Part shown: piece by piece, positions 29,597 through 64,000 of the stretch | Layout of the letters: every line of letters starts with the position of its first letter | How positions within the stretch are numbered: the stretch's first letter is position 1 | Assembly (NCBI GenBank): GCA_028532985.1 | Contig: JANCIK010000010.1 | Location: 2,356,001 to 2,420,000 of the forward strand | Length of the DNA stretch: 64,000 nucleotides | From: Stropharia rugosoannulata | Taxonomy: Eukaryota > Basidiomycota > Agaricomycetes > Agaricales > Strophariaceae | Direction of reading: 5' to 3' | Notes under the pieces: generated by a model | What the model saw: the letters and a program-made list of their open reading frames with translations, nothing else | The model's database searches: none | Told to the model about the DNA's origin: nothing | Made by a program: the position numbers and the translations under genes

Positions 29597-32500
29597 AAGT
29601 ATTTTCAGCAGCATGAATGGCACAAGGAAGAGGTAGTCAAGGGAGAGCCTAGAGGACAGTTCCATGCATCGCATGAGGAACAGGTCCCTAGTAAAAGACA
29701 AGGAGTAACACATAAGCACTTGACTGGCAAAAGTGCCACAACTGTTACAGTGCCCACAGGAAAGAAGTATAAGCCAGTGGCTGAGAAAGTCAGGCCTGTC
29801 TATCAAGATTTACTAGAGAAGTTTAGAATAGTGAGGGAGATTAAAGGAGACCCACTAAAGGACATGCTGCAATTGTCACCACATCTGCCAGAGTTTGTAC
29901 CTACAGGTCAGTACACAGCTGAGCACATGGAGGGAATCAACAAGGCGCATGAAGGAGATTTCCTGTGGTCCGAGGAGCGCAAATTGGTGCATCAAATTTT
30001 CATGCAGCAGAATGAGGTGTTTGCATGGAATGACACAGAGAAGGGTAGATTCCATATGGACTTCTTCCCTTCAGTAGATATCCCCACCATAGAGCACACG
30101 CCTTGGGTATTGAAGAACATTCCAATACACCCTGGGATGTATGAGCAAGTATGTGAATTTATCGCTACCAAGATTCACACAGGCATGTTGAGAGGTCTGC
30201 CGCGGGGCTAGACTCGAATCACAAGAAACACAACACACACAACCCAGCAGAGCGAGATCCTATCCCCTAGATCGAGCAATGCTCTTCAGCTAAGCGGATT
30301 ATAGATGTCTATGCTTCTCCTGGTCCTCTCTGCTGAGCGGACTGTGATGTTTAAGAGTCTCGTAAGTTCAGTCCAGATATCCGCTGTACAGTGCCTGCAA
30401 GTTCATTTTTAAGGAGGGGTTTAATTCTAGAAGTCTTAGATTAATGTCTGGGCAACCTCTGCTGAGCACAGGGTATCGATAGTAATGTATAGTTTTGATG
30501 GTGGCTCCGCGGGGCTTATTCCGCTGAGTGGGTTTGAGGTCCGGTGACCGATGCAGATGCTCACACAAGCTGGTATTCCCGATTGTGCCTCGCTCTGCTG
30601 ACTATCCAAAGTCGTTCTGCTGGGACTGTCCAAAGTCCTATTCCGCTGAGGCTATCCAGAACCTCGTTCACCCGGTGGTGCAGTCTCAATTCACAAAACA
30701 CTACAGTGCAAGTTTTCGTACACGGTTGCACTGACTCCCCACTGAGCTCTCCAAATGACCCGGTGGCCAGAAGTTATCCAAAACTTCTATGATTCACAAT
30801 ACACTTCACAGTAAAGACCCTAACAAAAGCTAAACACAGCCTGCTGACGGTCTGGGACGGAGCCCAACACACAGATCTAGTGGGTAGACAATTGCTTAAA
30901 TTACTATAGACAAGGATACAGGTTTATATGTGATGTGCACATGTGTACTAATAATAAGGTAAAGTAAATACTAGCAATGTGCAGCCAAAGGTCTGCGCAT
31001 CGCATCCGGGCTTCCCTTCGAGTGTCCTGATCCCTTGGCATTCACTACATGCATGTCGTTTGTTCCCTCGGGCTTTTGCACATCTCTTTTGATGCGCACC
31101 ACCACGGTCACATGATGTGTGGACTTAGGCAAATTCTGCCTTTGCGATGCACACACATGAGATGCATGCACAGCCCTTCACACTGCCCTTGGTACTCGCT
31201 CAGCTGTACTCACACCGCACTTCGCTGGTGCTTAACCGTTCTATGCCTCTCCGATTGCTTGCACAGATGACCAGACTATGCACTTTAGGCTGTGCAGCTC
31301 GCTGACCGATCTCTCTCGCAATATGGTGCACGCAGGTGCTTATAGTCATAAAGCGCGCTGATAGCTATAGACTATGAGTCAGGCTCCACTCTAGTCCCTC
31401 TGTGTTTCCCGCGCGCAGCTATCCCACCAATGGGACTTCTAACTATTTACACCTGTAGCCAAAAAGCAGCCCTGTCAATGTATGAGCCATCGAGCTCATC
31501 ATACTGATTGTGCTGGTTTACAGTAACTAAGAAAGACAGGGTCTTGTTCAGAATTGTGCACAGTTTGGAGCTGTTAAATGCAGTAACCATTGCACATTCA
31601 GGGCTACCTCCAGCAGCAGAGAGCCTGGCGGAACACTTTGCAGGGCATGCATGTGGCAGCATTCTAGACTTGTACATTGGGTACAATGAGCAGCTGTTAG
31701 CTGAGTCCTCTTGAGATCTGACTACATTCCAGACACTGTTCAGTGCACTGTGCTTAGTAACCCTACCTATGGGATGGACGAACTCCATGCCCATCTTTCA
31801 TGAGGATGTCGTCTATATATTATGCAATGAAATACCTGAAGTTACAGAACCCTACATAGATGATGTACCTATTAGGGGACCCAAAACATGCTATGAGTTA
31901 GAAGGAGGAGGATACAAGACAATACCAGAGAATAAAGGGATAAGGAGGTTTGTGTGGGAGCATATGTTGAATGTCAACAGGATTGTGCAGCACATGAAGT
32001 ACTCAGGAGGAACATTTAGTGGAAAGAAGTCCATACTGTGCGCAGCTGAGATAGTAGTGGTGGGGCACTTGTGCACATACAAAGGGTGAAAGCCAGCACC
32101 AGATAAAGTGCATGCAATCCTCAATTGGGGGCCATGCCAGAATATCAGTGATGTGTGCACATACATGGGTACAATGGGTCTGCTACGTATTTACATCTCA
32201 GACTATGCAAAGCATGCAGAGCACATACAGCAGCTATTGCGTGGGAAAGAGCCCTTTGAGTGGGGGCCTGCTCAGCAAGCTAGCATGGACTCGCTGAAAG
32301 ATGGTGCGCACAACGCACATTGTGTGAAACCACTGGACTACATATTGCCAGGGCCAATTACTTTGGCTGTAGACACCTCATGGCGAGCAGTAGGGTTCTA
32401 TATTTACCAGCAGGACCCACAAGATTCAAAGAAAAGGGTATATGCACACTTCAGATCAATATTGTTAACAGAATGCGAGCAGTGCTTCTCATAGCCCAAA

Positions 32501-37394: not shown

Positions 37395-37871
37395 AATTCC
37401 TGGCAAATGCAAATTAGTTCCACAACATAAGTTTCCCTTCCTATTGTACCCAAGTTAATGTGATGGTTTATTTGCCATTGTATGTTTATGTAAGGTGCTG
37501 ACTAATATAGTTACTTCATGACAAATCTTAAGTACATTTAAATATACCTAATTACCTACTTACAAATATGATCTAATCTATGTAGTAGTGACTTGGCCAA
37601 GATGTAGTGATATGAAGTAATATTTTTGATGTTTTTATCAAGCAAAAATGTAACATTAATAGACATTTAGAGACATCTAGAGACATTATGAACACTTAAA
37701 AAGACATTCAAGAGACTCCTAGAGACATAAAAAAGTCTTTAAAAGTTTGATACCTGGAGACTTTGCTTTAAAAATCTCCTAGAGACCCAGGTCTCCTGGG
37801 GTCTTTTTAAGTCTTTTCGAGTCTTTTTAAAAAATTAAAAGACTTTTTTCAAAAAACTGTTTTTCCTGATG
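37395..37871 (+). mobile_element. Element B: right-end part of the element A family
   Basis: Homologous to 19873-20988 of element A without the nested MITE, ending CCTGATG at 37871. The left half is missing. It gives the empty site that defines the MITE at 20270-20925. One extra segment of about 25 bases (near 37763-37786) is absent from A. Confidence 0.8.
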
Positions 37872-39854
37872 CATTGCACATGCCCTGCAGCAGTTACATG
37901 TGGCTGCAGGGTGTATGCACCTGCTATGCTCGCCCACCCATACATCATGCATGCCAGCCCTGCCTGCCTCCTTTCCTGCTCACTCATACATCACACATGC
38001 CAGGACATTAGGATCTTCTTGGCATGCATATCTGATGCCCTCCCTGATCCTGATGTCCTGCTCCACCTCTGAGCCTGGCTGCTTGGGAAAAGGAAGACTT
38101 TGACCATTTGTAGCCACCATACTGCAAGAAAAATTAAGGTTGAAGTCACCTGCTTCACCATGCTTAGGTTGCAATCCCCTAATAACAGAATCAGCTCTGC
38201 TCATCATGGCCACCAGTGAGTAAATTTCATTTTTGTTCATCATTCTCAGTACTTACTGTCTTTTTATTCACAGGATCCGAGTATAGCACTTACTGCTATC
38301 ACAGAATGTTGTCCTGCAACCAGGAAAAAAGAGAACAGGCTATCTCATGCCTGGTAAAGGCACTGGATGACATTCATGATAGAATTAAGCAATTCAGCTC
38401 AATTTCAAAAGTATGGCACATTGTCATGTAGTAAGTCTTAGTCTTTTGAAGTCTTTTCAGCACATACTTACTAGTTGAATCCACAGCTCAGATCTTCATT
38501 ATTCTGATAGTGAGGCCAGTGCCCTGTTGCCTCACTACACTGCATTTGGTTTCATGAGCATCAAAGGAAATCTGACTAGGAGGAGAAAATCCACCTGCTT
38601 ATACTGCAAAATGTGGTATATTCATGTGTAAGTCAACAATAAAGGGATCATGCAGCAAGTCAAATGTGACTTAATGAATCCAAAACAATAGTGTGTTGTG
38701 AAGGGACATAAGATGCATTTTGCTGCTGTAAGCTTACCTTGGAGACCTGACTGTAAAATCTTACTAACTTCTTCCAGGGCCCATACTATATTTGATAGTT
38801 AGATTAGTATATCATACAAAATAGCAGAATATTTTGTTGAAAAAAATGTCAGAGGCTAGTTTAGTATAGTAGTGACACCACCCAATGTGTATAGTATTAA
38901 TCTGTGAAACCTGTATACCATCCCTCTCACAATGTACATGATACCTACATGCTTGTATAATACTAATGATAAATTGTACTGTAGTTTAGATAAATTTATT
39001 ATATAATCAGACTAATGATCATTCTTTAGTATCACAGTAAGCATATACTACATATCTTGTAAGGCTGTCATTATCCTGAGATATGATAGCCAATTTTTCA
39101 TCAGGCCCTGTAACTCAAAACACAAATATGTTCCAATATATGTAAATACAGATTTGCTGGAATACTACTACAGGATCATCACCCAAAGGGCACTGTGGAC
39201 TTCTATGTATAATGTCCCATAAGGGCATATAACTCTGCATTATACAGCAATCATACTGTCAGAGTTAAAATGTCAAATCAATTTTCCTACTTTTTACTAA
39301 TGGCTTTGGTTCCTATTCTAGGCATACAATGTGTGCACCTTGTTTCCTATAGTCTTGGTAATAGCAAGTAGTGCCTGCAAGTTTGTTTGTAAGAATTCTA
39401 GTAAATCTCAGATAGACATCAGTAAACCAGCCAAATATTGGTAAGTACTTATAGCTTCTATAGGTTGCTATCAATGTGGCAGTGCTTAACAAGACTTTGT
39501 ATTAGTTTATAAAGTCAGTGTCATTACAGGTGCATATTACCAGAATGTACTGTAGGCAGATTGCATATGTAGCCACATGTAATATACTCCCATTCTAATG
39601 GAGTTTTATATCCATTATATATAATCCCTGTAGTATTGTAGGTCCTATACAAGATAGCTATCAGTCTTATGTACATAAGTGCTTATATGCCAGTTATCTT
39701 AATGATTTGGATTGGATATTTAGGGTAAAATACATTTAGATATCTATAATGCATTTATCAATTATCTAGTCAAATGTAAAGCAATGCTCTTATGGAAAGT
39801 AGCATACATTTCATTGTATGTATTTATGACAATGTAGTTTACAGGTACTACAAG
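37872..39854. other. AT-rich region, only coding scraps
   Basis: 38216-38640 has short + strand pieces that look once-coding (YCYHRMLSCNQEKREQ; then HYSDSEASALLPHYTAFGF) but match no family I know. 37995-38045 carries a motif shared, inverted, with 10350-10400. From 38640 to 39854 I see nothing but AT-rich DNA. Confidence 0.35.
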
Positions 39855-48281: not shown

Positions 48282-48445
48282 TTATAGCTGGTGTTGGGTT
48301 CGATACTTGTTAAGTATGTCCGAGGTGTTCTTCAGGTTTGCAGGTGGTTCCCAAGAGTCCTCGTTGGCATCGTAGCCCTTCCATCTGACCAGGTATTCAG
48401 TTCTTTTGCCCTTCCTTCTATGGTGCATAATTCGTTCCACTTCGT
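48282..48445 (-). pseudogene. Element G pol, terminal chromodomain only
   Basis: Minus strand reads NEVERIMHHRRKGKRTEY, LVRWKGYDANEDSWEP and ends at TAA 48282-48284. This is a complete-looking chromodomain as found at the end of chromovirus integrase. Upstream pol is cut off exactly where the LTR of element E begins (48446). Confidence 0.85.
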
Positions 48446-49861
48446 TGACAGGCCTGCGTTTACACCAGGACTGTAAGTGGTCACAGCGGGCGTCTTGGGC
48501 TGGAGTGCAGGGGTGCAGCGGAGCGGTGACTAGCCTGGTCAGCCGTCTCAGTGCTCAGCGCGTGCATCACAAATCATCACGTGTGTGCTCAGCAGGCGAT
48601 TGTGTGGGGTTCAGCGGACTGTACGGGCCACAAGTACACAGTTGAAGTACCTGGAATAGCTGTCAGCGGAGCACATAACGGTTACTGTCTTCTCAGCGGG
48701 AGACAGGAGTACAGCTGAGCGGAGAATATCAAAGGCGACGAGCAGGACTGTGTGTAGACGGCGTCTCAAAGGGACTCAGCGGAACACATTACAAAGGCGA
48801 AATTTGCCTAAGTCCACTCGTCAGGTGACCGTGGTGTGCGCGCTGGAGCGTGTGATGCCCGAGGGAATGAACAATGCACACAGCACGGACTCCGCTGGGG
48901 AACTTTGGCAACGGTGACCAGACCTCGATGACCAAGAAGGAACCGCCCAGCGGAGTTTAACGGCGTCTCTCGGCGGAGGCTGGCCACACAACGGGGTCAG
49001 GTCGCGCTCAGCGGAGTAGCCATCAAAACGCCCAGCGGAGGCACATGTGCTCAGCGGACCTTTGGTCCGGCGTTGCTAGTATTTACTCTCCACCTAAATT
49101 AGTACACAGCGCGCGTCTATATAAACTTGTAATTGTAACTACGGAAATCAAGCAATTGTCTACCCACTAGATCTGTGTGTTGGGCTCCGTCCCAGACCGT
49201 CAGCGGGCTGTGTTTAGCTTTTGTTAGGGTCTTTACTGTGAAGTTATTGTGAATCATAGAAGTTTTGGATAGCTTCTGGCCACCGGGTCATTTGGAGAGC
49301 TCAGCGGGGAGTCAGTGCAACCGTGTACGAAAACTCGCGCTGTAGTGTTTTGTGAATTGAGACTGCACCACCGGGTGAACGAGGTTCTGGATAGCCTCAG
49401 CGGAATAGGACTTTGGACAGTCCCAGCGGAACGACTTTGGATAGTCAGCAGAGCGAGGCACAATTGGAATACCAGCTTGTGTGAGCATCTGCATCAGTCA
49501 CCGGACCTCAAACCCACTCAGCGGAATAAGCCCCGCAGAGCCACCATCAAAACTACACATTACTATCGATACCCGGCGCTCAGCGGAGGTCGCCCAGACA
49601 TTAATCTGAGACTTCTAGAATTAAACCCCTCCTTAGAAACGAACTTGCAGGCACTGTACAGCGGACATCTGGACTGAACTTACAAGACTCTTAAACATCA
49701 CAGTCCGCTCAGCGGAGAGGACCAGGAGAAGCGTAGACATCTATAATCCGTTTAGCTGAAGAGCGTCGCTCGATCTAAGGGATACTAGGATCTCGCTCCG
49801 CTGGGGTTGTGTGTGTTTGTGTCTCTTGTGATTCGAGTCTAGCCCCGCGGCAGACCTCTCA
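48446..49861 (+). repeat. Element E 5' LTR
   Basis: 1416 bp, TGACAGG at the start and CAGACCTCTCA at the end. Homologous in inverted orientation to 54437-55653 and 30189-31477, best over the last 800 bp. About fourteen copies of CAGCGGA by eye. TATA box TATATAAA at 49118-49125. Minus-strand frames here are not genes. Confidence 0.85.
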
Positions 49862-49863
49862 TC

Positions 49864-49880
49864 TGGAGCCCACCGCGAGG
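49864..49880 (+). other. Element E primer binding site
   Basis: TGGAGCCCACCGCGAGG, two bases after the LTR. It begins with TGG, pairing with a tRNA CCA end. The tRNA was not identified. Confidence 0.7.
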
Positions 49881-49936
49881 GGTAGGTTCAGAAATCTCAT
49901 ATAGTGTTTCGGGGACCACGGCTTAGCGCCTATTAC

Positions 49937-51990
49937 AAAACATTTCAAAAATTTCAAATACAACGGGGACGAGTAACAAGCGAGGCAAATTTCCTGCACC
50001 GTCGTCGCTAGCAGAACCAGCGGAGGCTAGACCATCATTTGGTATATTGCCTCCAAGCGGGCGATCGACTAGGAGCAAGAAAGACGCTGAGCTTGTGGAA
50101 CCATTGGTGATTACACCTACTCGAGATAGAAAAGCGAAGAGGAAAGCAAAGGAAGAGGCGTGGCTACAGATAGAAACACAGGATCTTGCTCAGCGCGTAC
50201 CAGGAGCGCTTACAGAGAGTGACTCAGAGCGGGAGGACGGGCCCAGCGGATTCTGGGGACCGCCTTCTGGAATTGAAACAGACGACCGCTCAGCGGACGG
50301 AGACATTACGCTTGAAGTTGCACCATTTGGCTCATCAGATAGCCAAGCTACTCAAGACACACCTCCTCCGTTTTCGGAAGTATTCGAGACTGCTAAGAGA
50401 TCCGCTCAGCGGACGACAGATAATAGTGAGAGTGAGGCCGAGCGCGTGGCCAGAGATATATTTGAAGGAGACTTGTCAGACCTTTCCACAAGTAAACACG
50501 AACCGCCCCCTGAAATTATCACCATGCCTAAGGAAACGTCTATGCCTGTGCGCGGAGCGCGCGGTGCACCAAGCTTCGACCCCTCTGCTGAGCGTGATGA
50601 ACTCCCACGCTACTTCGAGGACTTAGAGGACTGGTTCAAGCGCGCTGAGGTGACGGAGGATGATGAGAGGAGAGGCTATGTAATCAAATATGTACCCATG
50701 CAGACAGCGGAGGAGTGGAAGAATTTACCAGGCTATGACACCAAGAGTTACGCTGAGCTGAAGAAGATGATCCTCAATGAATATCCTGAGGTGATCAGTA
50801 TTCAGACGGGGTCCATCGCGCGCCTAAAGAAGCTGTGCAAGGAGAACCAGCGCATCTCGGAGGAAGACCTCCAGGTGCTGTTGGACTTCAAGCGGGCATT
50901 CTTAGCGGAGGCAGCGAAGTTGACCAAGGCGCCTACCTTGCTGGCCAATCATACACTGGTGACCTACTTCACCAAAAGTCTCACAGCGGGGTTCAGGGAG
51001 AGGTTGTTTAACAAGCTGGATATCGACTACACTACGAGAACGTCGTTTGACAAGTACCTAAAGGAACGCAATATACCCTTTACGGCGCCAGCGGGGATTC
51101 AGGTGGAAGCGCAGACTGAGGACATGTATCCGCTGAAGCAGGTGGCAGAAATGGCGGAGCAGATGGCGCGCACCAAGAATCCTAGCACTTCGCTCAGCCT
51201 GACTCGAGACTCAGCGGACAGGCTCATGCCTGTACCTGCCATCAAGACCGAGTCAGCGGAGGTGCATACGCTGTGCGGGAGATTGAGGACTTGAAGGGTT
51301 TTGTAGCGTCGTTTAAAGATACGTTGTCGCTGGTAGAAAAGACGGTGGCGAAGTCAAAGGAGACCAATAAGAAGGAGTTGGAAGATATTCTGTGCAATGT
51401 AATGTCATCGCGGGCGGCGCCTGTCGCTGCGCCAGTCCAGCCAGCGGTACCTATGATGCCAATGGGAGGACCAGGTTTCAGCGGAGCGACGCTGCGTCCG
51501 TTTCAATACCAACAGCGACCTGAACCGAGGTGCTTCTATTGTAAACAGACGGGACACATCGTAGCGGAGTGTATTGTGAGGCAACAGGATCTGTCCGCTG
51601 GGAAGATAATCATTACGGAAGCTGGAAGGCTCCAGCTGCCAGATGGATCGTCATTACCTTGGGACCCTTCGCGCGCTATCAAAGAACGTGTAGATGAGTG
51701 GCACAAGAAGAATGGGCCGCCAGCGCAGCAGACCTACATGGCGCCGGTACACCCAGCATACATGGGGACTCCGCCGAGCATGGTGTACGCCCAGGTCTAC
51801 CAACCAGCCAGCTCTCTCGATGAGACTTATGAGGAGCAAATTGAACGCTGAAACAGGAGCTGGACAGCCGGAAGGCGTTCTTAAAGGAGCGCTCAGCGGT
51901 CAAGACGCCAGAGGAGGTGATAGAGGAACAGCGGCAGCTGATCGCGACCATGAAAGCGGAGCGGGATGCAGCGCTGAGCCAGGGTTTCGA
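49937..51990 (+). pseudogene. Element E gag, two frame breaks
   Basis: Open from about 49937 without any ATG until 50524; relatives' start unknown. Acidic N-terminus, then capsid-like ELPRYFEDLEDWFKRAEV (about 50600) to LTAGFRERLF. The frame shifts near 51265 (next part: REIEDLKGFVASF) and again near 51850, after which LKQELDSRKAF...LSQGFD runs to TGA about 51993. One zinc knuckle CFYCKQTGHIVAEC at about 51534-51575. Both breaks look like single-base losses; they could be decay or sequencing errors. Confidence 0.8.
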
Positions 51991-51998
51991 TTGAGTCT

Positions 51999-54436
51999 GA
52001 TGAAGGGAAGTGCGGGCAGAGTTCAGCGTAGCGGCTCTGATAAACCCAAGAACCCGGAAGACGTAAATAAGAAGCTACCAGTAAGAAGTACACCAAGGAC
52101 AACTATCGAGGAGGTCGACAGCGGAGATGAGGAAGAGTTTATAGAAGAGATTAGTAGACAGGCGCCCAGCGGAGCGGAGAAAAAGAAAGTAAGCTTCGCA
52201 GCGCCAGCGCAGAAAGTTGGGGAGAATAAAAAGCCAGCACAGGTGCCGTATGTAATGGTTCCTCCGCTGCGCGTACCAGAAAAGAGTCGGCCGCCTGTAA
52301 GAGAAGCGCCGGTGCCAGTGATAGAGAAAAGGAAGCCAGCGTATAAGTTGCGCGCGGCCATTGAGGATGAAGCGCAAGCGGACGAAGTCCTTAAGCGTTT
52401 AGAGAGCCAGAAAATAGAGATCACTCAAGGGCAATTATTGGGGATCTCTACAGCGGGGTTTAGGAGGAAGTTTGTCGAGCGTATCATACCGCGCAAAGTT
52501 CCGCTGGATGTAAATACCATGCGGGTTTTGCAGCTGGATTATGAGGCAGAGGAGTGGGAGATGGACGAGGCCATCGCCCAGCTGAAGCAGGAGAATGAAG
52601 AAGAAGAGTTCATGCGAATGGACGAGCTCCCAGCGGCGACATTCCTCACTTGCGCGGAGGAGCGCGGTGGATTACAACCCGGCACAATAATCATGGAGGA
52701 TCCCTATGAGCAATACATCTCGACGTTACAACCAGGCGAAAAGCCAAAGGGATTAATTGTGGCACGAGAGTCGCACCATCTCAAGGCGGTATTTCCGCTG
52801 ATCAATGGGAAAGGCCGTGCGGAGACTCTGCTCGACAGCGGATCGCAAATAGTGTCTATGGCGCAAGATACTGCGGAGCGACTAGGCTTAAGCTGGGATC
52901 CTGACTTTACCATTAGGATGCAGAGCGCTAACAAACAAGTCGAGTCGACTAAGGGTTTAGCGCGGAATGTACCTTTTGTGTTCAGCGGACTGACAGTGTA
53001 CCTACAAGTGCACGTGATCAGCGCGACGCCTATGAGGTTCTGTTGGGGAAGCCGTTCGAAATTCTCACTGAAAGCAATGTGAAGACGCGCGGGGATGGCA
53101 CAGTGGAACTTACGCTGACGGACCCAAACACTCAGCGGAAGCTAGTGGTACCCACGTATAATTGAGGGTGCGGGCCGAAGATACTTCAGCGGGAACCAGA
53201 TGTGCAGGACTCCAGCGCAGCGGAGGAGCCGCACGCCGACCAGGATTTTCAGTCCTCGATGATTTGATGCGTCAAGGAGAGGTCGCGTTAATGTTCGAGC
53301 GGGATGATAGGACTGGAAAGATAGAGATAGCGGGGTATGCATTGCCAAAGAAGGGAGGGAGATTTGGCTCCGCTGAGCTGAGAGATGTGTACATGGCTCA
53401 AGCTGTGCACGAGGCTAAGATGGAGGATAAAGAGAAAGCATCAATTTATAAGTACTTTCAGCAAAAGGAATGGCGAGAAAAAGAGACGGTGAAAGGAGAG
53501 CCTAGGGGGCAATTCCGCTCAGCGGACCCCGAGCAAGGCCAGTCAGCGCGGAAAGGAGTAACTAGAAAGCGGTTAAGTGGTAAGAATGCCACTACTGTAA
53601 CCGTCTTTGCAGGAAAGAAATATAAGCCGGTCGCTGACAAGGTCAGGCCCGTTTATCAAGAGCTACCAGAGAAATTCAGGATAGTGAGAGAAATAAAGGG
53701 AGATCCGCTGAAAGAAATGCCTCCGCTGACGGTACACCCACCAGAGTTTGTACCCACGGGAAGGTACACAGCGGAGCGGAAGGAGGAAATAGATAAAGCG
53801 CACGGAGGAGATTTCCTGTGGCCAGAGGAGCGCAAGCTAGTACATCAGGTGTTCATGCAGCAGAATGAGGCGTTTGCGTGGGATGACACGGAAAAGGGGA
53901 GGTTTAGAACAGACTTCTTCCTGCCGGTAGATATTCCAACGGTAGAACATACGCCGTGGGTACTGAAAAATATACCCATTCCGCCAGGCATGTACGAGCG
54001 TGTGTGCAAGTTCATCACTACTAAGATCCGCACTGGGACTTATGAACCATCCAGTTCATCATACCGGTCGCGCTGGTTCACAGTAACGAAGAAAGACGGG
54101 GTGTCCTTTAGAATAGTACACAGCTTAGAGCCGCTGAACGCTGTTACCATCGCACACTCAGGATTGCCACCGGCAGCGGAGAGTTTGGCAGAACACTTCG
54201 CTGGGCGTGCGTGCGGCGGAATACTGGACTTGTATGTAGGTTACGACGAGCGGCTCTTAGCGGAGTCGTCTCGCGACTTAACAACATTCCAGACACCGTT
54301 TGGTGCGCTCCGCTTAGTAACCTTACCAATGGGCTGGACCAATTCTGTACCCATCTTTCATGAAGATGTAACTTATATTCTCCGCGATGAAATACCAGAC
54401 GTCACGGAGCCGTACATTGACGATGTGCCTATCCGC
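51999..54436 (+). pseudogene. Element E pol: protease and RT, 5' part
   Basis: Frame from 51999 to about 53027 holds a Lys/Pro-rich linker and the protease motif LLDSGSQIVSM (about 52827). A one-base loss near 53027 moves the reading into PYEVLLGKPF...PTYN, ending at TGA 53162. The next frame (from about 53165) contains KGEPRGQF, then RT motifs WFTVTKKDGVSFRIVHSLEPLN, LVTLPMGWTNSVPIFHEDV and YIDDVPIR at 54416-54436. The RT frame continues without change at 55658 once the solo LTR and one CCGC are removed. Confidence 0.8.
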
Positions 54437-55653
54437 TGAGAGGTCTACTGCGTAGCTAGACTCGAAATCGCGAAACACAACACACACACACACACCCAGC
54501 GGAGCGAGATCCTATCCCTTAGATCGAGCGAACGCCCTCAACTAAATGGTAGTATAATCTATGCTCTGCTCTGGTTCCCGTTCTGGGCGTGCGATGCGCG
54601 CACCTCGTGTCCTCTAGTCTTTGTAATAGCAAGTAGTGCCTGCAAGTTCGTTTGTAAGGAGGGGTTTAATTCTAGTAAATCTCGGATAGAGCCCGGTTGC
54701 TAGTGGCGTGCGCTAGGCAAAATGATGAATGAAATAAGTTGTGTTTAGCAAACGGCTTCGCTGCGCGCACTTCCGGGTCTGGTGACCTCGTGCGATGCGC
54801 GGACTCTCCAAAGTCCAACAATCCAAGACTCTCCAAAGTCTTTCACCCGGCGGTGCAGTCTCACAGTCTAAACACTACAGTGCGAGTTTCCGTACACGGT
54901 TGTACTGACTCCTCACTGAGCTCTCCAAATGACCCGGTGGCCAGAAGCTATCCAAAACTCCTATAATTCACAGAACACTTCACAGTTAAGACCCTAACAA
55001 AAGCTAAACACAGCCCGCTGACGGCCTGGGACAGAACCCAGCACACAGATCTAGTGGGTAGACAATTGCTTAAATTACTATAGACAAGGATACAGGTTTA
55101 TATGCGATGTGCGCATGTGTACTAATAATAAGGTAAAGTAAATACTAGCAACGCGCGGCCAAAGGTCCGCGCATCGCTTCCGGGCTTCCCTTCGAGTGTC
55201 CTGATCCCTTGGCATTCGCTGTGCGCATGTCGTTCATTCCCTCGGGCTTTTGCGCGTCTTTTGATGCGCGCCGCCACGGTCACATGATGTGTGGACTTAG
55301 ACAAATTCTGCCTTTGCGATGCGCGCATATGAGATACGCGCACAGCCCTTCACACCGCCTTTGGTATCCGCTCAGCTGTACTCACACCGCTCTTTGCTGG
55401 TGCTTAACCATTCTACGCTTCCCTGATCGCTCGCACAGACGGCCAAACTATGCACTCTAGACTGTGCAGCTCGCTGACCAATCCTTCTCGCGATACGGTG
55501 CGCGCAGGCGCTTGTAGTCATGATGCTCGCGCGCTGATAGCTATAGACTATGAGGCAGGCTCAACTCTAGTCCCTCTGTGTTTCCCGCGCGCAGCTATCC
55601 CACTAGCGGACCTTCTAACTGTTTACACCCGTAGCCAAAAAGCAGCCCTGTCA
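54437..55653 (-). repeat. Solo LTR of the E family inside E's own RT
   Basis: 1217 bp in antisense orientation, TGAGAGG to CCTGTCA on the + strand, flanked by CCGC on both sides (54433-54436, 55654-55657). Very similar to the solo LTR at 30189-31477 apart from CG/TG differences. It proves that another member of the family inserted into this copy. Confidence 0.9.
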
Positions 55654-58416
55654 CCGCGGACCGAAGACACGGTATGAATTAGAGGATGGAGGGTACGAGA
55701 CGATTCCAGAGAACAGCGGAATCAGGCGTTTTGTGTGGGAACACATGCAAAATGTGAATAGGATAGTTCAGCGGATGAAGTACTCAGGAGGGACTTTCAG
55801 CGGAAAGAAATCCATATTGTGTGCAGCGGAGATTGTAGTGGTGGGACACTTATGTACCTACGAGGGTCGAAAGCCAGCGCCAGATAAAGTACACGCTATC
55901 CTCAACTGGGGGCCGTGTAAGAATGTCAGCGATGTGCGCGCCTTCATGGGTACGATGGGGCTCCTGCGTATTTACATCTCAGACTACGCTAAGCGAGCGG
56001 AGCACATACAGCGATTGTTGCGTGGGAAAGAACCCTTCGAGTGGGGGCCAGCGCAGCAAGCCAGTATGGACGCACTGAAGGATGGAGTGCGGAACGCACA
56101 CTGTGTCAAGCCGCTGGACTATACACTGCCAGGACCAATCACGCTGGCAGTAGATACGTCTTGGCGCTGTAGGATTTTATATCTACCAGCAAGATCCGCT
56201 GAACGCGAAGAAGCGCGTACGCCCGCTTTGGGTCAATTCTGTTAACTGAGAGGGAACAGCGGTTCTCACAACCAAAGAGAGAGCTATACGGGCTATTGCG
56301 AGCGCTGCAGGCGTGCTATTACTGGCTCATCGGAGCGCGGAAGCTGGTAGTGGAGACGGACGCCAAATATCTCAAAGGGATGTTGGATAATCCAGGCATG
56401 GGACCTAACGCTACCATTAACCGCTGGATAGACAAGATCCTTATGTACCACTTTCAGCTGAAGCATGTAGCAGGCAAAACGTTTGGCGCGGACGGTCTGT
56501 CGCGACGAGAAGGACAACCAGGAGATGAAGAGTATGAGCACTCAGCGGAGGATGATGACCAAGAAGTAGGCCCGCTGGAGTACGAGAAAGTGTATGAAGA
56601 GGATCCCGATCCACTGAGTTTAGAAGAGTTCAAGGACCAGATTGACAACTGCGGAGGGTATCTACAAGCTGGATTCCTCAACGAGTTGTTTGATGGTCCC
56701 GCTGAGCCAGCTAGAACAGAGGCACATTCGGTTGACTGTTTCCAGTTAGAACTGGAGCAGGCCAGAAAAGAGACGAGAGAAGAACAGCGGACAGTGCGTA
56801 ACTTACTACAGACAGAGGAGGTGTCGCCCGCTCAGCGGGCGTACTTAGAGAAATTTGTTCTGGCACATGTAATTCCAGAGTCGAAGATAGATGAGTTGGA
56901 AGATGAAGAGTACGATGAGCGGAACAGAACATCAGCGGGGAAGGACATGGATGATAAGCTGCCAATGATAAGGTATTGGCTGCAAAATCCCAGTACAAGA
57001 CCCAAGGATATGAGCGAGCGGGAGTATCAGAATTTCATCCGCAACGCACGAAACTTCTTCTTAGACAAGGATGGACGGATGTACCGGCACTCAGTGGACG
57101 AGGCACATAAGCTGGTAGTTGATCCCGCTCAGCGGACGCGCATGTTGCGCGCCGCGCATGACAGTTTGGGGCACAGAGGCGCATACGCCACACGCAAACT
57201 GCTGATGGAGCGCTTCTGGTGGCCAGAGCTGGAGCGGGATGTCTACTGGTATGTCAAGACATGCCATGTGTGTCAGCTGAGGCAAAAGACGATCATCCAG
57301 ATTCCGCGGACAGAGACACATACGCCGTCCATCTTCCAGCAGCTACACGCGGACACTATGCACATGTCACCTGCCTCGAATGGGTATAACTACATAGTGC
57401 ACGGACGGTGTGCGCTGAGCTCATGGGTGGAAGGTCGTCCGCTGAAGAAAGAGAACGCAAGGGCGATAGCGCAGTGGATGTTTGAGGATATTATCTGCCA
57501 CTGGGGATGTCTTAGAGAGATAATCACAGATAACGGTGGACCGTTCCGCGCAGCGCTCAAGTACTTAGAAAAGAAGTATGGTATTACAGGGATTACAATC
57601 TCAGCATACAACTCTCAGGCGAACAGAAAGATAGAGCGGCCCCATTGGGACATCAGACAAATGTTGTGGAAAGTGTGTGGAGGTACCGAGGGCGCACATA
57701 AGCGCTGGAGCAAGTTCTTCTACCATGTGCTGTGGGCGGACCGCGTTACAGTGCGCCAGCATTTGGGTGTTCACCCTTCTTCATGGTCACTGGCGCGCAC
57801 CCAATACTACCGCTGGACATCGCTGAAGCGACGTGGCTGGTCAAGTTACCAGATCGGGTACTTACCACAGAGGAGTTAGTAGGGTATCGTGCGCGCGCGC
57901 TGGCCAAACATAGGGACACAGTGGAGGAGATGCGTCAGCGGGTGTCGAAGATAAAGCGGGATGCTATCAGAGAGTTTGAGCGAAAACACTCCGCTAAGAT
58001 TAGGGACTATGCGTTCAAACCCGGCGATGTCGTACTGATGCGTAACTCTGGCATTGAGTCCAGCTTAAATCGCAAAATGTTGGCGCGCTGGAATGGACCA
58101 TACATTGTTATCGCGCGGAAGGAAGGTGGCGCTTATCTAGTCGCTGAGCTGGATGGGTCGGTGCTGAAAGACAAAGTTGCAGCATTCCGCTTAATACCCT
58201 ACTTTGCCAGGCGCCAGCTGAAGCTGCCAGCGGACTTAGACGATATCATTGATCAAACGCGAGAACCTCAACAAGATGATGTCAGCACCAGACTACGAGC
58301 CGGCCATACCTAAAGACTATATCTTTGATGAACCAGGAGTGGCTTCAGGCAGCGGTCAAGTCTCAGCGGACGAAGAAGATGATGATGAGGATGGGTGGGC
58401 GGAGCCCGATGCTTAG
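55654..58416 (+). pseudogene. Element E pol: RT end, RNase H and integrase
   Basis: Continues RT (GPKTRYELEDGG), connection and RNase H (ITLAVDTSW at 56149; FGADGLSRREG at 56482). A two-base loss near 56171 shifts the frame relative to fragment F. Integrase: HHCC finger (HDSLGHRGAY, CHVCQLRQ), catalytic Asp in HADTMHMSP and ITDNGGPF, Glu in KIERPHWD. Another one-base shift near 57745-57765 precedes FGCSPFFMVTGAHPILPLD and a GPY/F-type C-terminal module (GDVVLMRNSG, MLARWNGPYIV). A last frame from 58276 gives an acidic tail to TAG 58414-58416. No chromodomain. Confidence 0.8.
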
Positions 58417-58487
58417 AAGCGCAAAGTAGAAAAGGAGACCACAATAGAGTATATTGGGTAAACTAAAGGAGAAAGGTACAAAAGAAA

Positions 58488-59850
58488 CTAGCTAAGGGCC
58501 ACTTTGAGGCGCTCAGCGGAGTAATTAAGAGGGCCATCACTGCGGCGCGGGCTCCTCAGCGGGCTGGTCCCAGTCAAATCCAAGCTGCGCTGTAAAGTCT
58601 CTAACTCTTTAACAAGCAGAGCGCGGCGCTTCAGGATGAAGTCAATCTTGTGCAAGTCACAGATGATCTCAGCTTGCAAGTCTCCGATGAGACGGCGAGT
58701 GACGAGCTCGGATGGGTTCCCGGTGTTCAGCGGTTCCTTAATGAGGTTGGTAGCAGCGTCGAGACAGGCATTGACTTTGTCATTCGAAAGAGTAAGATTG
58801 GTACCTAAAAGAAGATGAAGTAGTTCAGCGGACGCAACAGAGAAGAGTGAGGGCAAAGAGCGCACCCTGTACAATGAAAGGAGAATCGGCGAAAGTAGGA
58901 ACGCCGTCAGCGCCGAGACGGGCCTTCTTAGAGGAAGCGTCGTGGAACGGTGTGTCGCGCGGAGAGCGCCGGTTGTCAGAGGAGCAGAGTGTCATGCCGC
59001 GGCCAAGCGCACGAGTGCGATGTCCGCTGGCCTCAGTGCGCTCCCGCTGACATAGAAGTAAGAAAGTAACGAGGGAGGGAAGACGCAACAGAACGAACCT
59101 GACGAGGGGTGTCGGGAGGAGGCGCTGAGCGCTTCTTCGAAGGACTAGGCTCTGGGGTATTCTGGCAGCTAGGTACTCCGCCCTCAGTGGCAGCCTCGAT
59201 CTTGTCATCGAGGGCCATCTTTTTAAGGAGGAGGTACAGCTGCATGTTAGTAATATCTAAAGAGAGTGAAGGAAGTCAGTCACACCTTGTCATCATCGGA
59301 ATCGGGGGATGAGGTACCTCCAGGGGCAGAGACCGTCTCAGGATCGGCAGCGGAGCGCGAGAGGAGACGAACGTTGCGCTGAGCGGGCGGTTAAAAGAAA
59401 ATAAAAGGCAGCAAGTGCATAGCGTACTGGTCCAGTGGGAGTATGCATGCGCTGACGCGAGGCAGCGGCTTTCGCTTTTAAAACTTGCTCATGCAGAGTG
59501 ATAAAAGCGTTGGCAGCAGGAGAGAAAGTGCGGAAGTGGTGATCCGCCTCTAAGGAGGTGTAGATGGCACGCATCTCGTTGAGAATATCAACAGCCTCGC
59601 TGTTATTAATGATACGAGTAATGCCGCCGTGGGGATCACGCCAGCGGTTCTAAAAAGTTCGAGTGGTCAGCGGAGTAAAGGACCCAGCGGACCAGCTGAG
59701 TGTTGTGCGTACTAAGTCAATAGCCAGAAGCTCGAGGCTCCCGGTATAGTTGGAAGGCATGGCGGAAGCCAAGCCTCTGATATCTTGGATTAATGCCAGC
59801 TGATGCTTGACATTACTAAAGTTGTACAGCGGAGCGGGTGCGTTGGACAT
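58488..59850 (-). CDS. Antisense gene 4 of element E, 6 exons, unknown function
   Basis: Exons (minus): 59850-59713, 59649-59428, 59378-59286, 59239-59099, 59046-58866, 58804-58488; 1092 nt, 363 residues, phases agree throughout. Introns are 46-63 nt. Start ATG 59850 has a TATA box about 40 nt upstream. The protein is helical by eye at the start (YNFSNVKHQLALIQDIRGL) and end (DLHKIDFILKRRALLVKELETLQRSLD), with a Ser/Pro/Lys-rich middle containing PSPSKKRS, a possible nuclear signal. No known domain. CAGCGGA motifs occur in both exons and introns. Exon choice rests on splice sites and phase only. Confidence 0.6.
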
Positions 59851-59884
59851 GAGTGGCTGAGTGATTGAAAGTATGAGAGTGGGG

Positions 59885-59896
59885 CATATATATAGG
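59885..59896 (-). promoter_or_regulatory. TATA box of antisense gene 4
   Basis: CCTATATATATG on the minus strand, 35-46 bases before the ATG at 59850. Confidence 0.6.
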
Positions 59897-60301
59897 CTCA
59901 GCGGAGTGCAGAGGACCTAATGAGGGGCGGCCAGTGGCGAGGAATGTGGCATCCCAGCGGACCAGACTCCCAGCGGAGTTATGGTATGAACGCTGGAGGT
60001 AGAAACAGACCACCACATGCAGGCTCGCATAAAACGGGGTGCAGAGCGGGAGCAATTGGTAGACGAAATGAGATCCAGCAGAGAGGCGCGCTAGCTGAAA
60101 GCACTGAGCGGAGGCTGATCGTGTGATTACCGCATTTGGAAAAATTATGTCCGAATCAGGTATTGGCACCGACAATACATAGTGCCTAACTAGATACTTG
60201 TCATTTCAAATAGCTATGGAGGCACCACATGTAGAGCCATTTACTCTGGTTACTGTGACAAGGGTATTCTACGAAGTAAACCAAGGAAGGGGCGTAATAC
60301 C

Positions 60302-60846
60302 TCAAACATCCTGACATAATCCTGGTCTCAGCACAGCGGAGAAGGAAGAGAAAAGGGGACAGACGGGGAAGAAGTCCTCCTGGTAGAAATGCTGGGCGGC
60401 ATAATGGAGGCGTTGAAAGTGTTCGGTGTGATTAAGAACGCCGTAGCGCTCAGCGTCGTTGGTACCACACAGGCGAAGCACAAGTTCGGTGTAATACAGC
60501 TGAGCGCAGAGATGAGAAAGAAGCAGTGAATGACAGGTGGACTCGGTCAGCTCTAGGCCGCGCTGCGCGGACTACTCAGTGGGAGTACATGGACAGCGGA
60601 AAAGGGGCTTACGGCGTGATCTTGAACTCGGTTGAGCAGCGGGAGGCAGACGCTCATAGGTAGCTGTTCCTCCACAGCGGAGTCCAGGATATAGTGAAGG
60701 GCAGTTACATATATCCGGCAGACTCGAGCTAGGTCGATGGGAAGGATAGCACTCAGCGGACGCCTGGGCAGAGCGTCGAGACGAAGGATGCGAGGATCTG
60801 AATGGGCAACTAACAAGAGGTTACTCTCAGCGGACAAAGAGGGCAT
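60302..60846 (-). CDS. Antisense gene 3 of element E, 2 exons, unknown function
   Basis: Exons 60846-60613 and 60499-60302, intron 113 nt (GTAAGC...CTCAG), 143 residues. Begins MPSLSAESNLLLVAHSDPRIL and has a helical middle (IDLARVCRIYVTALHYILD); exon 2 reads LYYTELVLRLCGTNDAERY and is rich in aromatic residues. No signal peptide or known domain. A TATA box lies about 30 nt upstream. Whether 60130-60300 holds anything is unclear. Confidence 0.55.
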
Positions 60847-60874
60847 GTTTACGTATAGAAATACAAGGGATAGA

Positions 60875-60882
60875 ATTATATA
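60875..60882 (-). promoter_or_regulatory. TATA box of antisense gene 3
   Basis: Minus strand reads GTATATAATT, about 30 bases upstream of ATG 60846. Confidence 0.6.
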
Positions 60883-60909
60883 CGCAGAGTGCCAGCGCAG
60901 CGGGACATC

Positions 60910-61381
60910 CTAATCAGAGCTGACGTCGTCTACGACGAGCGCGGCATTGGGATCGACTTCGCGAATTTCGGCCTCATTTCGTTCGGAAGAAAGCAGCGGG
61001 TGGAAGGGCATGCCCAGATGACTGTATCGGTCAAGAATGCATAGAGCGGCATTACTGAGTAAGCGAGGATCGAAATGATCATCGCTGAACTTCCGCTGAG
61101 CACGGGCTTCGTAAAACACGACGGTCATGAGGAACGCCAGGAACTGGCGATTAAAGTCGATGAATCTCAGCGGAAGGGCGATGCGGTCCTGTGGAGATGG
61201 TCAGCGGAGGGGACTCTATGAAACGGAGCCTTACCAGCGCGCAGACAACGGCCTGCGCTGACTGCAAAGGCAGGTGAATCGTAGTTTCAGCGGAGTCTTC
61301 GTTGAGCTCAGCATGGACAGCCAGCTGTTTGAGGATGGAGGTGAACTGGCGTGCAACATTGGTACGCTGGTAGCGTTGCAT
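60910..61381 (-). CDS. Antisense gene 2 of element E, 2 exons, unknown function
   Basis: Exons 61381-61235 and 61188-60910, intron 46 nt, 141 residues. Start ATG 61381 (MQRYQRTNVARQFTSILKQL) chosen because the TATA box lies about 50 nt upstream; an ATG further up at 61483 would read through that box. Helical by eye, with LRFIDFNRQFLAFLMTVVFY as a hydrophobic stretch and an acidic C-terminus. Same size and similar helical make-up as antisense gene 3. Relationship not shown. Confidence 0.55.
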
Positions 61382-61794
61382 GACAGGTGGGATAAAAAGG
61401 AACAAAGAGCTGGTCAACTGAGGACAGTTGATTTTATAGTGAAGGGGAGAGAGCCCGCAAAAAAATATGGCAGTGGAGCACATGTGGGGAAAAAGAAGTC
61501 CACTGAGCGGACCTGAGAAGAAGATAAAAGTATACCAGCGAACACTCAGCAGAAGAGAAGTCAGCGATTGCTCAGCTGAGAGGAGTCTATAACTTGAAGG
61601 GACTTGAGGAACTTCAAACTCACTTCAGACTCACACAAAGAAGACAAGAACAAAAGAGGCATATTTGATTATAGCAATATCTAATTTACTTTACATATGC
61701 CAGATAAAGTAATAAGGAGCAGGAGAACAAGAAGTATAGAAAAGAGAAATAAGGGCCCCAAGGCCTGACAACCGGCGGAAGCGTGCGCCTGACC
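61382..61794. other. Spacer between antisense genes 1 and 2
   Basis: Besides the promoter of gene 2, it contains the 3' flank of gene 1. No other gene seen. Motif variants such as GAGCGGA and CAGCAGA are still present. Confidence 0.4.
61432..61438 (-). promoter_or_regulatory. TATA box of antisense gene 2
   Basis: TATAAAA on the minus strand, about 51 bases before ATG 61381. Confidence 0.55.
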
Positions 61795-63804
61795 TCAATC
61801 CCCCTCCGCGGGAACCTCGGCGGCGTCTACCTCGCTAGGGACGCGCGAAGGAGTCAAGAAGGTGCGAACCACAGCGGGGGCTTTGCCTTTGGAAGCAGTA
61901 GTGAAGGGCTCGAGGCGCGAAGTGCTCGCGAACGGAGTGGCGGGAAGAGAGCGTTCCGCGGGAGTTCCTCGCTTGGATGAACGATCCCGTGAGCGTTTGG
62001 CCTTCTCTGCTGCGATGATAGCGTCAGCCTCTTCAGCTTGGCGGAGGGCCGCGTCCTCGAAAGCTTGAGATTCGGCTGCATTGAAGGCTTCTAGAGTTAT
62101 AGCCTGATCAGGCTGGGGGGCGGGAATGAAGGTGGTGGGGTCAAAGCGCGGGTGCTTTGGGTCATAGAAAGAGGCGGCGGGGGCAACGATGAGGGGATCT
62201 TCCACGACGGCGGGGGCACAAAGAGAGGCGTAGGCCTCGTGCAAGCGGTTGAGGTCAAGGCAGCGGAGCGCGTCGAATGTTTCGCAATCACGGAAGCGCG
62301 GGCCAATAATGATCCCGGTGGGAAGAGTGAGCGCCATGGCGCGCGCCAGCTGTGAAAGTTCAATTAGTTGACCAAAGAACATGCGCTCAGCGGAGCGGCG
62401 CTGCTCTTCAGCCACATGAGCCTGCTCCGTGTAGGCGCTGAGGCGAGCGAAGCCAGACAGAAGGCCTGGAAAGAAAGATTATAAGTCAGAATGATAGATA
62501 GTGACGGAAAGTGGACTTACTGGTCAGAGAAGTACGATGCCACAGGGAGGAGTCTTCAATCGTTTTGTCGACCTCCGCGGGCTCGCAACAGAAGAGGCAT
62601 TTTCCCTTCTGCTGGGTACTGCAAGTGCAGCAATTCCGTGCCCACCCACGGCAGATGCACTGATGGAGGCCTTCGTTTATACGAGCGTTGAAAGGACGCG
62701 CGCAGTGGTTGCACACCATTCCTCGCTGGGGAAGAGTAAACAAGTCAATAAAAATAAAATAAAATAAAAAGCCCAGCGGGCAGATGAGACACGCACGATA
62801 ATAGCGCCTTCGAGGCGGGACTCGGAAGGGAGCATGCTCATATCAATGGCGTCGGGGAGGGGGGCACCAGCCAGGGCAAGCTTCGCAGAAAACACAGGAG
62901 GCAGGACGTCGAGAATCGGGTAGGTAGACTTGTAAGCAACCTTGTTACTGTCGGGACGGGTATTCGTGATCTCCTCGATTCTGCTGTCAGTCAGGGCCAA
63001 AGGAGGGCCGCCAGCGGAGCGGACGAAAGAAACCCCCGCTGAGGACTCGAGATCCGCCTGGGCTGTGGAAAGATCAGTAAAGAAAAGGGCAAGAAGGGCG
63101 TCGAGAAGAGACATACCAGCAATAGCGGCACTGGCAGCCAGTGCAGCTGGGCGCTGACGTTTGATTGGCTTGGGGAGTGGCGCGGAAGGAACGACGACAA
63201 CAGGGGGAGTGGGAAGGCGCTTCCGCTTATCCTTGCGCACAGCGGGCGACGGAGATGAGGGCCGCTGAACTTCGTCGTCGGAAATCATAATGACATCTTC
63301 TACGGCAGGGGCAGCGCTAAGCAAGAGGGGATCGGGGGAGGGGTGAGGAGCGGAACCCAACAGCGGGCGGGGGCCAGGATTGTCGGTACCGTCCCACTGG
63401 GTGGGGAAGGCGGTTGCGAAGAATTGGAGATAAGAAGCCAAGGGCTGGTAACCGCTGGTAAACCAGCGACGCGCTTGCAGCTTCGGAGCAAGAGAAGGGT
63501 CGTCCGCGATGAGCATGTCGGCCACCGCAGAAAGAAGGATGCACAGTTCGCGTACCCCGCTGTGGTAAAGGCCGTCGGAGCAATGGACACTCAGGTGGTC
63601 TTCGACAGTGTTGTCAATGACCCCCCGGAGATCCTCCAGACGAGCCAACCCATCATCGGAGAGGTCATCAGCGCCGGCCAAGATTTCAAATTCTTGATAG
63701 ATGGCGAGCGCAGGGCAGAGTCGACGGAAACGATCCTGGGCGTCCAATTGTGCGTCCGCGCGCTCTTGAGCACGGCAGCGGCGGTCGAAATTCTTGAGAG
63801 ACAT
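61795..63804 (-). CDS. Antisense gene 1 of element E, Cys-rich cluster protein, 3 exons
   Basis: Exons 63804-62797, 62725-62521, 62465-61795; introns 71 and 55 nt; 627 residues with all phases matching. Residues 1-336 are helical then Pro/Ser-rich with basic runs (RKDKRKRLPTPP, KPIKRQRP) that could be nuclear signals. Exon 2 encodes a compact Cys cluster (residues 341-387: CNHC, CIC, NCCTC, CLFCC), probably zinc-binding. Exon 3 is helical with EEQRRSAERMFFGQLIEL and a charged Ala-rich coil, then a Ser/Thr/Pro-rich end. I recall similar Cys-cluster proteins near transposons in Agaricomycetes but cannot name a family. Binding to DNA is a guess. Confidence 0.65.
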
Positions 63805-63890
63805 AGCAGCGAAGAAATTAGAAGAGCGTGCAGGTGGTCTGCAAACGAGGGAAGAAAGGGAATGAGCATCAAGGGAAAGCCAGACCCCTG

Positions 63891-63899
63891 CTTATAAAC
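63891..63899 (-). promoter_or_regulatory. TATA box of antisense gene 1
   Basis: GTTTATAAG on the minus strand, about 88 bases before ATG 63804. Confidence 0.5.
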
Positions 63900-64000
63900 G
63901 ATAACGCTCGCACTATGGAGGAATTTTCTGGAAGATAAACTACAGTGTGGCGGCGTCACATAAACTTTCAGGCAATCTACATAGAGGGCAGGGGTTTAGA

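What the first reader, a model, noticed from the sequence alone, without database searches (positions are those of the whole stretch)
48446..64000. Gypsy element that appears to carry four spliced genes on its antisense strand
After a gypsy 5' LTR, primer site, gag and pol on the + strand, four intact multi-exon genes follow on the minus strand with no 3' LTR between. Known basis: some plant Ty3 elements (for example Grande and Retand) carry antisense ORFs between pol and the 3' LTR. Inference: this would be a fungal counterpart, larger and with introns. Introns on the antisense strand are not removed from the sense genomic RNA, so such genes could survive retrotransposition.
Basis: partly seen in the sequence, partly recalled or inferred. 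Interest (0 to 1): 0.9.

Follow-up and report, generated by a model that had tools for sequence, protein, structure and literature searches.

The report
Jumping gene carrying four antisense genes
A family of retrotransposons, apparently fungal, carries four spliced genes on the strand opposite its own, and each related family is peppered with its own short DNA word, which suggests that the carried genes read the word to act only on their own kind.

Summary
Confirmed and extended. The missing 3' LTR lies 233 bp past the window end and differs from the 5' LTR by indels only; the 15.8 kb unit is repeated in tandem (LTR-unit-LTR-unit-LTR) with TSD TCGT. The order recurs in this genome: 30 of 31 E1 integrase rows have genes B-D within 3 kb, none an LTR, and other cargo-bearing copies have their own TSDs. 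Genes A-D are spliced (GT-AG), shared with sister family E2 (one full copy read) and under purifying selection. Gene A exists as very divergent haplotypes among closely similar copies. A third family, E3, has an antisense block of like layout, homology not shown.

New: E1, E2 and E3 are each rich in a different CpG-containing word (CTCAGCGGA; ATGCGCGCA; ACCGGGTTAA-like), 3.6-5.2 per kb, rare in the other two, dense in LTRs and B-D introns. This resembles Arabidopsis VANC anti-silencing targets. I propose that an antisense protein, most likely the Cys-rich gene A product, reads its family's word; no binding was tested. Insertions favour N-CG-N (11 of 13 perfect TSDs).

The parts
48442..48445 (.). 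target-site duplication TCGT (left); right copy follows the third LTR at C10:2437418
48446..49861 (+). 5' LTR of E1; 20 CAGCGG/CCGCTG words
49862..49882 (+). primer binding site TCTGGAGCCCACCGCGAGGGG
49927..53082 (+). gag and protease, in several overlapping ORFs (frame broken in this copy)
   Evidence: aspartyl protease
53162..54436 (+). pol, first part of RT, cut by the nested LTR
54437..55653 (-). nested solo LTR of sister family E2 (TSD CCGC at 54433-54436 and 55654-55657)
55658..58313 (+). pol, RNase H, integrase and tail (several frames)
58488..59850 (-). antisense gene D, 6 exons, 358 aa model, basic NLS-like stretches
60302..60846 (-). antisense gene C, 3 exons, 146 aa
60910..61381 (-). 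antisense gene B, 2 exons, 141 aa
61795..63804 (-). antisense gene A, 4 exons, 609 aa; hypervariable between copies; exon 3 (62521-62725) is the Cys-rich part
63805..64000 (-). region 5' of gene A, runs to PPT and 3' LTR at C10:2420233-2421644 (outside the window)
48446..64000 (.). dispersed E1 word CTCAGCGGA: 74 CAGCGGA (both strands) in 14.3 kb, + strand biased

Best explanation
E1 is a large Ty3/gypsy retrotransposon whose pol-3'LTR region holds a four-gene antisense block that moves as part of the element (shown by LTRs, TSDs and copies); its introns survive because they are antisense to the genomic RNA (follows from LTR-element replication). Mechanism (inferred): the block makes nuclear proteins that act in trans on the element's own DNA. 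A sequence-specific reader, most likely the Cys-rich gene A product, binds the family's dispersed CpG-containing word in LTRs, introns and, in E1, coding DNA, and keeps that family free of host silencing, as VANC does for VANDAL elements. My confidence is about 0.97 in the anatomy and 0.4-0.45 in the mechanism.
For: Anatomy: LTRs, PBS, PPT and TSD; same order at other loci; TSDs of other cargo-bearing copies GCGC, ACGT, CCGG, ACGT; GT-AG introns at matching places in E1 and E2 apart from one extra E2 intron in A (the models were made by hand with the other family as guide, so the match is not wholly independent); dN/dS about 0.11 for B, low dN with saturated dS for C and D; 0.08-0.19 in the six of eight gene A comparisons where dS could be estimated. 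Mechanism: word specificity, per kb of E1/E2/E3 word: E1 5.16/0.07/0.14, E2 0.38/4.27/0.00, E3 0.06/0.24/3.59, rest of window 0.19/0.08/0.06; top 7-mer z 29.0, 17.0, 11.2 against 4.1-9.6 in five control stretches treated alike; densest in LTRs and B-D introns (intron counts only 6, 5 and 3); E1 word 90:26 on one strand, as VANC21 motifs are arrayed in one orientation (PMC5735166, Results read). E1-word codons in gag-pol keep E2's amino acid in 102 of 142 cases against 1873 of 2199 elsewhere, p 1e-4, so the word seems to have spread at a cost to protein conservation. Exon 3 of gene A is 86-100% identical among most E1 loci examined, 70% in one class, and 33-43% to E2 copies, which share another signature.
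Against: No binding, methylation or expression data. Only three families, and the words were picked from the same sequences that were counted (applies the same picking to controls). No Pfam match above cut-off for A-D of E1, A of E2 or B-D of E3 (weak sub-threshold hits for E3: DUF7079 E 0.026, Transposase_24 E 0.033), no NCBIfam match for the three proteins tried, no PDB match for A (B-D not tried). VANC's domains were not found. Single-sequence AlphaFold models of exons 1 and 3 of A are at pLDDT 50. E2's word shows no cost to amino-acid conservation (64 of 74). In E2, three of the five B-D intron words are at the 5' splice site, so a splicing role is possible there. Word positions in E1 and E2 are not shared beyond chance (8 against about 5.7 expected). 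E3's B, C and D have no demonstrable homology to those of E1/E2. E3's z (11.2) is close to the best control (9.6).
Confidence: 0.45

Rival explanations
1. The antisense proteins are transcriptional regulators of the LTR (Tat- or HBZ-like, or as proposed for Retand TRP28 proteins), and the word is their binding site for activation or repression, without any role against silencing.
For: Highest word density in the LTR; NLS-like basic stretches in A and D (motif recognised from memory). A regulatory role is already proposed for plant antisense ORFs (PMC7264820, PMC11963269).
Against: The word is also spread through gag, pol and the antisense block, several kb from either LTR, which a promoter site does not need.
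Confidence: 0.25
2. The word is a cis signal in RNA: packaging, export or stability of the genomic RNA, or splicing of the antisense genes.
For: Sense-strand bias in E1, 90:26, p 2e-9, and for CGGGYTA in E3, 21:6; antisense introns are part of the genomic RNA; four E2 introns begin with GTGCGCGCA.
Against: E2's core word TGCGCGCA is its own reverse complement; VANC21 DNA sites are also in one orientation; density is highest in the LTR and low in coding DNA of E2 and E3.
Confidence: 0.15
3. The word is tied to integration: the integrase prefers N-CG-N, and bound words act as landing pads for other families or as protection from self-insertion.
For: 11 of 13 perfect TSDs are N-CG-N; one E1 solo LTR sits inside an E3 word (CTACCGGGCTAA).
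Against: Only that one of the insertions seen is plainly in a word; the E2 LTR nested in E1 is not (empty site in L047); a CpG preference alone does not explain why each family keeps one word.
Confidence: 0.07
4. The four genes are host genes trapped by chance between two LTRs.
For: None beyond the fact that only one copy was visible in the window.
Against: 30 of 31 E1 integrase rows are followed by B-D; own TSDs; sister family carries the same block.
Confidence: 0.01

Closest known systems
Retand / Grande / RIRE2 plant Ty3 elements with antisense ORFs between pol and 3' LTR
   Same: Long pol-3'LTR region with antisense genes, probably nuclear or DNA-binding products (PMC7264820 parts 1-2 of 3 read; PMC11963269 abstract and passages read).
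   Different: Here four genes with 1-5 introns each, no TRP28 (PF04195) match, family-specific dispersed word; the word 'intron' does not occur in the text of PMC11963269.
Boty of Botrytis cinerea
   Same: Fungal LTR element with an antisense additional ORF (named in PMC7264820; original paper not seen).
   Different: Not compared by sequence here; whether it has several spliced genes or a word was not checked.
VANDAL21/VANDAL6 with VANC anti-silencing proteins (Arabidopsis)
   Same: Short family-specific word at high density and in one orientation, mainly non-coding; related families have different words; fast-evolving accessory protein (PMC5735166 abstract and Results read).
   Different: VANDALs are DNA transposons (recalled); VANC motifs expand in tandem repeats, E1 words do not; E1 words are also in coding DNA; no match to VANC domains.
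Fungal DNA transposons carrying TET/JBP dioxygenases
   Same: Fungal transposons thought to carry a gene against methylation (PMC12730594, abstract read).
   Different: Enzyme of known family, DNA transposons; no word system is mentioned in the abstract.

Membership tests
Ty3/gypsy LTR retrotransposon | LTRs TG..CA, PBS, PPT, TSD | tested here: met
Ty3/gypsy LTR retrotransposon | protease - RT - RNase H - integrase order | tested here: met
   protease, then RNase H and H2C2 integrase; the RT piece gave no Pfam match but holds YIDD near its end
[quoted passage not shown]
Retand lineage | TRP28 (PF04195) domain in the antisense ORF | tested here: not met
   no Pfam family for A-D of E1; only sub-threshold hits for E3 B-D, none to PF04195
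VANC-type anti-silencing system | short word enriched in own family, rare elsewhere | tested here: met
   genome-wide rarity not tested
VANC-type anti-silencing system | word mainly non-coding, one orientation | tested here: inconclusive
   mainly non-coding in E2 and E3, everywhere in E1; orientation 90:26 in E1, E2 word palindromic
VANC-type anti-silencing system | DUF1985/DUF287 in the protein | tested here: not met
VANC-type anti-silencing system | protein binds the word and removes methylation | not testable with these tools
   needs EMSA/ChIP and bisulfite data
Boty | sequence relation to Boty gag-pol or its antisense ORF | not tested
   no Boty sequence at hand

The most novel reading that the evidence does not exclude
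A lineage of LTR retrotransposons in which each family carries, on its antisense strand, a spliced set of genes whose DNA-reading protein recognises a family-specific barcode written all over the element, so that activation is limited to its own kind; new families arise when barcode and reader change together, while very old gene A haplotypes are shuffled among copies by recombination.
Probability: 0.4. Interest if true: 0.93.

Novelty: new variant of a known kind. Interest (0 to 1): 0.8.

Why it matters
The role of antisense genes in LTR retrotransposons is an open question (PMC7264820 says their functions are yet unknown). Here three families with three different words, two of them with dozens of copies in one genome, make it directly testable: one gel shift per protein and word. 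If the mechanism holds, sequence-specific self-recognition against silencing arose in retrotransposons of a fungus as well as in plant DNA transposons, and this lineage would offer natural readers of CpG-containing words. The gene A haplotypes, old and still under purifying selection, would be an unusual case of long-kept diversity inside a selfish element.

Tried and rejected
Gene A variation as the cause of the word: rejected in its simple form, because E1 copies with gene A at 66-90% identity have the same word; what remains is that exon 3 is kept within a family and differs between families. Site-by-site replacement of one word by the other in the E1-E2 alignment: 8 co-located of 103 E1 sites against about 5.7 expected, not significant. 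Homology of E3 B/C/D to E1/E2 by profile comparison: not shown (best P 0.02 of 9 pairs, uncorrected). Homologues elsewhere: E1 gene D has one relative in the protein collection, 42% over 50%; E2 gene A residues 280-520 have none; B and C were not searched. A fourth family, E4 (L049), shows no dominant word, and I could not settle whether it has an antisense block. A script on E1 variants stopped half-way: four of eight copies done. The C7:848874 copy was first thought to share the nested E2 LTR; it does not. The nested E2 LTR was first thought to lie in an E1 word; its empty site in L047 shows that it does not, and I lowered the integration rival from 0.10 to 0.07 for that. The organism was not identified; 'fungus' is an inference from genome size, short introns and the kinds of elements, not a test. 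Literature: the listings (no paper), and the six papers opened, showed me no report of this lineage, of a word system in LTR retrotransposons, or of N-CG-N target choice in fungal Ty3 elements; only open-licence PMC papers are held and most listed papers were not opened, so this does not show absence from print.
Full report
What was given and what is there. The window is C10:2356001-2420000 of a 48 Mb genome in 20 contigs. The LTR at 48446-49861 has two further direct copies at 99-100% identity at C10:2420233 and 2436007, that is 233 bp and 16 kb past the window end. The stretch between LTR 1 and LTR 2 and that between LTR 2 and LTR 3 are 99.6-99.8% identical, the nested solo LTR included. LTR 1 and 2 differ by no substitution (4 gap positions), LTR 1 and 3 by 5 in 1411. 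TCGT lies before LTR 1 and after LTR 3; both flanks look like parts of another retroelement on the minus strand (read by eye). So one insertion event produced, or later became, an LTR-unit-LTR-unit-LTR array with the antisense genes inside both units.

Other copies. The LTR search listed 56 rows, 38 of them over the whole LTR at 90-100% identity. The integrase piece listed 41 rows, 32 at 92-100% (31 after joining two pieces) and 9 at 79-80%. Genes B-D listed 42 rows. For the order test I used 37 of these 42 (five short pieces left out), 42 of the 56 LTR rows, 33 of the 51 gene A rows (short second pieces left out) and the 31 integrase rows. Of the 37, 30 have an E1 integrase next to them in the right orientation, 31 have gene A, 27 have both, and 7 also have both LTRs in place (two of these are the tandem units). 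The other way round, 30 of 31 integrase rows have B-D within 3 kb and none has an LTR there (which used 27 of the LTR rows, those on contig stretches with integrase). The searches score a limited number of candidates, so counts are lower bounds. For 17 insertions of E1 or E2 type I could read both outer flanks: 13 have a perfect 4-bp duplication, 11 of these N-CG-N (TCGT, CCGG, GCGC, GCGT, CCGC, ACGT, ACGT, CCGG, ACGT, CCGT, ACGT) and 2 not (ACAT, TAGG); 3 differ by one base, in each case CG on one side and TG or CA on the other; 1 does not match (C3:3574694/3590708, CCGA/TCGT). One further LTR (C11:2567531) proved to be a 3' LTR and was left out. Five of the perfect ones bracket cargo-bearing E1 elements: the window array, C7:848874, C7:2539928, C5:305268 and C10:805477; the last has its integrase away from B-D, and the C7:848874 copy has gene A in pieces.

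The four genes. Spliced models: A 609 aa in 4 exons, B 141 aa in 2, C 146 aa in 3, D 358 aa in 6; every intron is GT-AG and 46-71 bp long. E2, read from one full copy (L038/L039, LTRs 98.8% alike; TSD ACGT), has the same four genes in the same order; the introns of B, C and D match, and A has one more. The models were made by hand with the other family as guide. Identity E1-E2 is 41% (A), 70% (B), 68% (C), 78% (D); dN/dS is 0.11 for B, and for A, C and D dS is saturated with dN 0.66, 0.24 and 0.17. In six other E1 copies (L032-L037) plus the second unit, B and C are open in 7 of 7 (one C intron in L035 lacks GT-AG in the alignment). For D, 5 of the 6 others were aligned base by base: against the window they have only one exon indel, about 25 codons from the end, and the sixth (L033) gives the same frame result; the second unit has in addition a one-base deletion. 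I did not recheck every D codon upstream of that point beyond the indel scan. None of the proteins tried has a Pfam or NCBIfam match above cut-off.

Gene A. Among E1 copies whose integrase is 92-100% and whose B-D are mostly 91-96% identical to the window's, gene A matches range from 100% down to 64%. E2 gene A behaves the same way, 100% to 67% over its longer matches. In eight comparisons with the window gene A, dN/dS is 0.08-0.19 in the six where dS could be estimated and undefined through saturation in two (L052, and E2's L039); one (L053) has a stop in exon 4. So these look like old, still constrained haplotypes placed into younger elements, best explained by recombination between copies or between co-packaged RNAs (inference). 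The Cys-rich exon 3 is the most conserved part: 86-100% among most E1 loci, 70% in the class of L054/L058, but 33-43% to four E2 copies (L039, L055-L057; two of the alignments cover 44 of 67 residues) and 34% to an E2-like piece with a stop in L006. The E2 copies share their own signature (CxLRGPGRKC..CR....GPC). In the E1-E2 comparison exon 3 (43% over 44 residues) is no longer more conserved than exon 4 (52%).

The words. E1 holds 74 CAGCGGA in 14.3 kb; the other 48.4 kb of the window hold 9. First-order expectation for the LTR is 0.25 against 16 seen. E2 holds 95 GCGCGCA in 15.9 kb against 19 expected from trinucleotides, E3 an ACCGGGTTAA-like word (counted as CGGGYTA or CCGGTATA). The matrix shows each family rich in its own word and poor in the other two. 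The top 7-mer z is 29.0, 17.0 and 11.2 for E1-E3, and 4.8, 7.4, 9.6, 4.1 and 4.8 for five control stretches. E1 words per kb: LTR 14.1, B-D introns 13.8 (6 words in 436 bp), B-D coding 8.7, gag-pol 7.5, A coding 6.0; E2: LTR 9.1, B-D introns 11.4 (5 words, three of them at 5' splice sites), B-D coding 1.0, A coding 2.2; E3: 7.6, 5.3 (3 words), 1.0, 0. The E1 word is on the element's sense strand in 90 of 116 cases. Codons that overlap an E1 word agree with E2 in 102 of 142 cases, other codons in 1873 of 2199 (p 1e-4); codons overlapping an E2 word show no such loss (64 of 74). E1 words are not in tandem repeats; E3-type DNA flanking the E2 copy has two short tandem repeats that contain its word.

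E3. A 16.4 kb element with 1.85 kb LTRs, 99.1% alike, integrase 53% identical to E1. On its antisense strand are a long gene with a Cys-rich part nearest the 3' LTR and three further spliced genes of about 147, 170 and 356 aa. The layout is that of E1/E2, but sequence homology of B, C and D was not detectable, and I did not obtain a clean model of its gene A.

Reading. That the element carries and moves a spliced-looking antisense gene block is shown. That introns persist because they are antisense to the genomic RNA follows from how LTR elements replicate. That a block product reads the word, and that the effect is against silencing, is inferred from the parallel with VANC (PMC5735166: word enriched in one family, dense, in one orientation, mostly non-coding, different in related families) and from the behaviour of exon 3. 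The decay of CG to TG or CA in three TSDs agrees with CpG methylation in this host, but is only three cases. Regulatory (non-silencing), RNA-level and integration-related readings remain open and are listed as rivals.

Place among known things. [quoted passage not shown] Anti-methylation genes on fungal DNA transposons are known (PMC12730594, abstract). In the listings I saw no report of several spliced antisense genes with a family-specific word in an LTR element. I therefore file it as a new variant of a known kind, with a possible new mechanism.

Noticed in passing
window 48442-48445 and loci L004-L008, L038/L039, L059-L078: E1 and E2 insert at N-CG-N: 11 of 13 perfect target-site duplications have CG in the middle; three more show CG on one side and TG/CA on the other.
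   Followed up: partly
window 54437-55653: Solo LTR of sister family E2 inserted in RT (TSD CCGC); it is present in both tandem units but not in four other E1 copies checked.
   Followed up: yes
window 30189-31477: What looks like another solo LTR on the minus strand, with an E2-type start and an E1-type end, TSD ACAT.
   Followed up: no
window 19404-20974, 29313-29521, 37698-38258: The word AAAAAGAC recurs in clusters, sometimes 10 bp apart; its core AAAAGAC has z 9.6 in window 16-32 kb.
   Followed up: no
L039 1-700: A second, truncated gene D of E2 type lies beside the full E2 copy.
   Followed up: no
L004 1480-1500 and 2916-2936: An E1 solo LTR sits inside an E3 word (empty site CTACCGGGCTAATTAGC, TSD CCGG).
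   Followed up: no
L039 4696, 6561, 7512, 8368: In E2 four introns of the antisense genes begin with the word itself (GTGCGCGCA at the 5' splice site).
   Followed up: no
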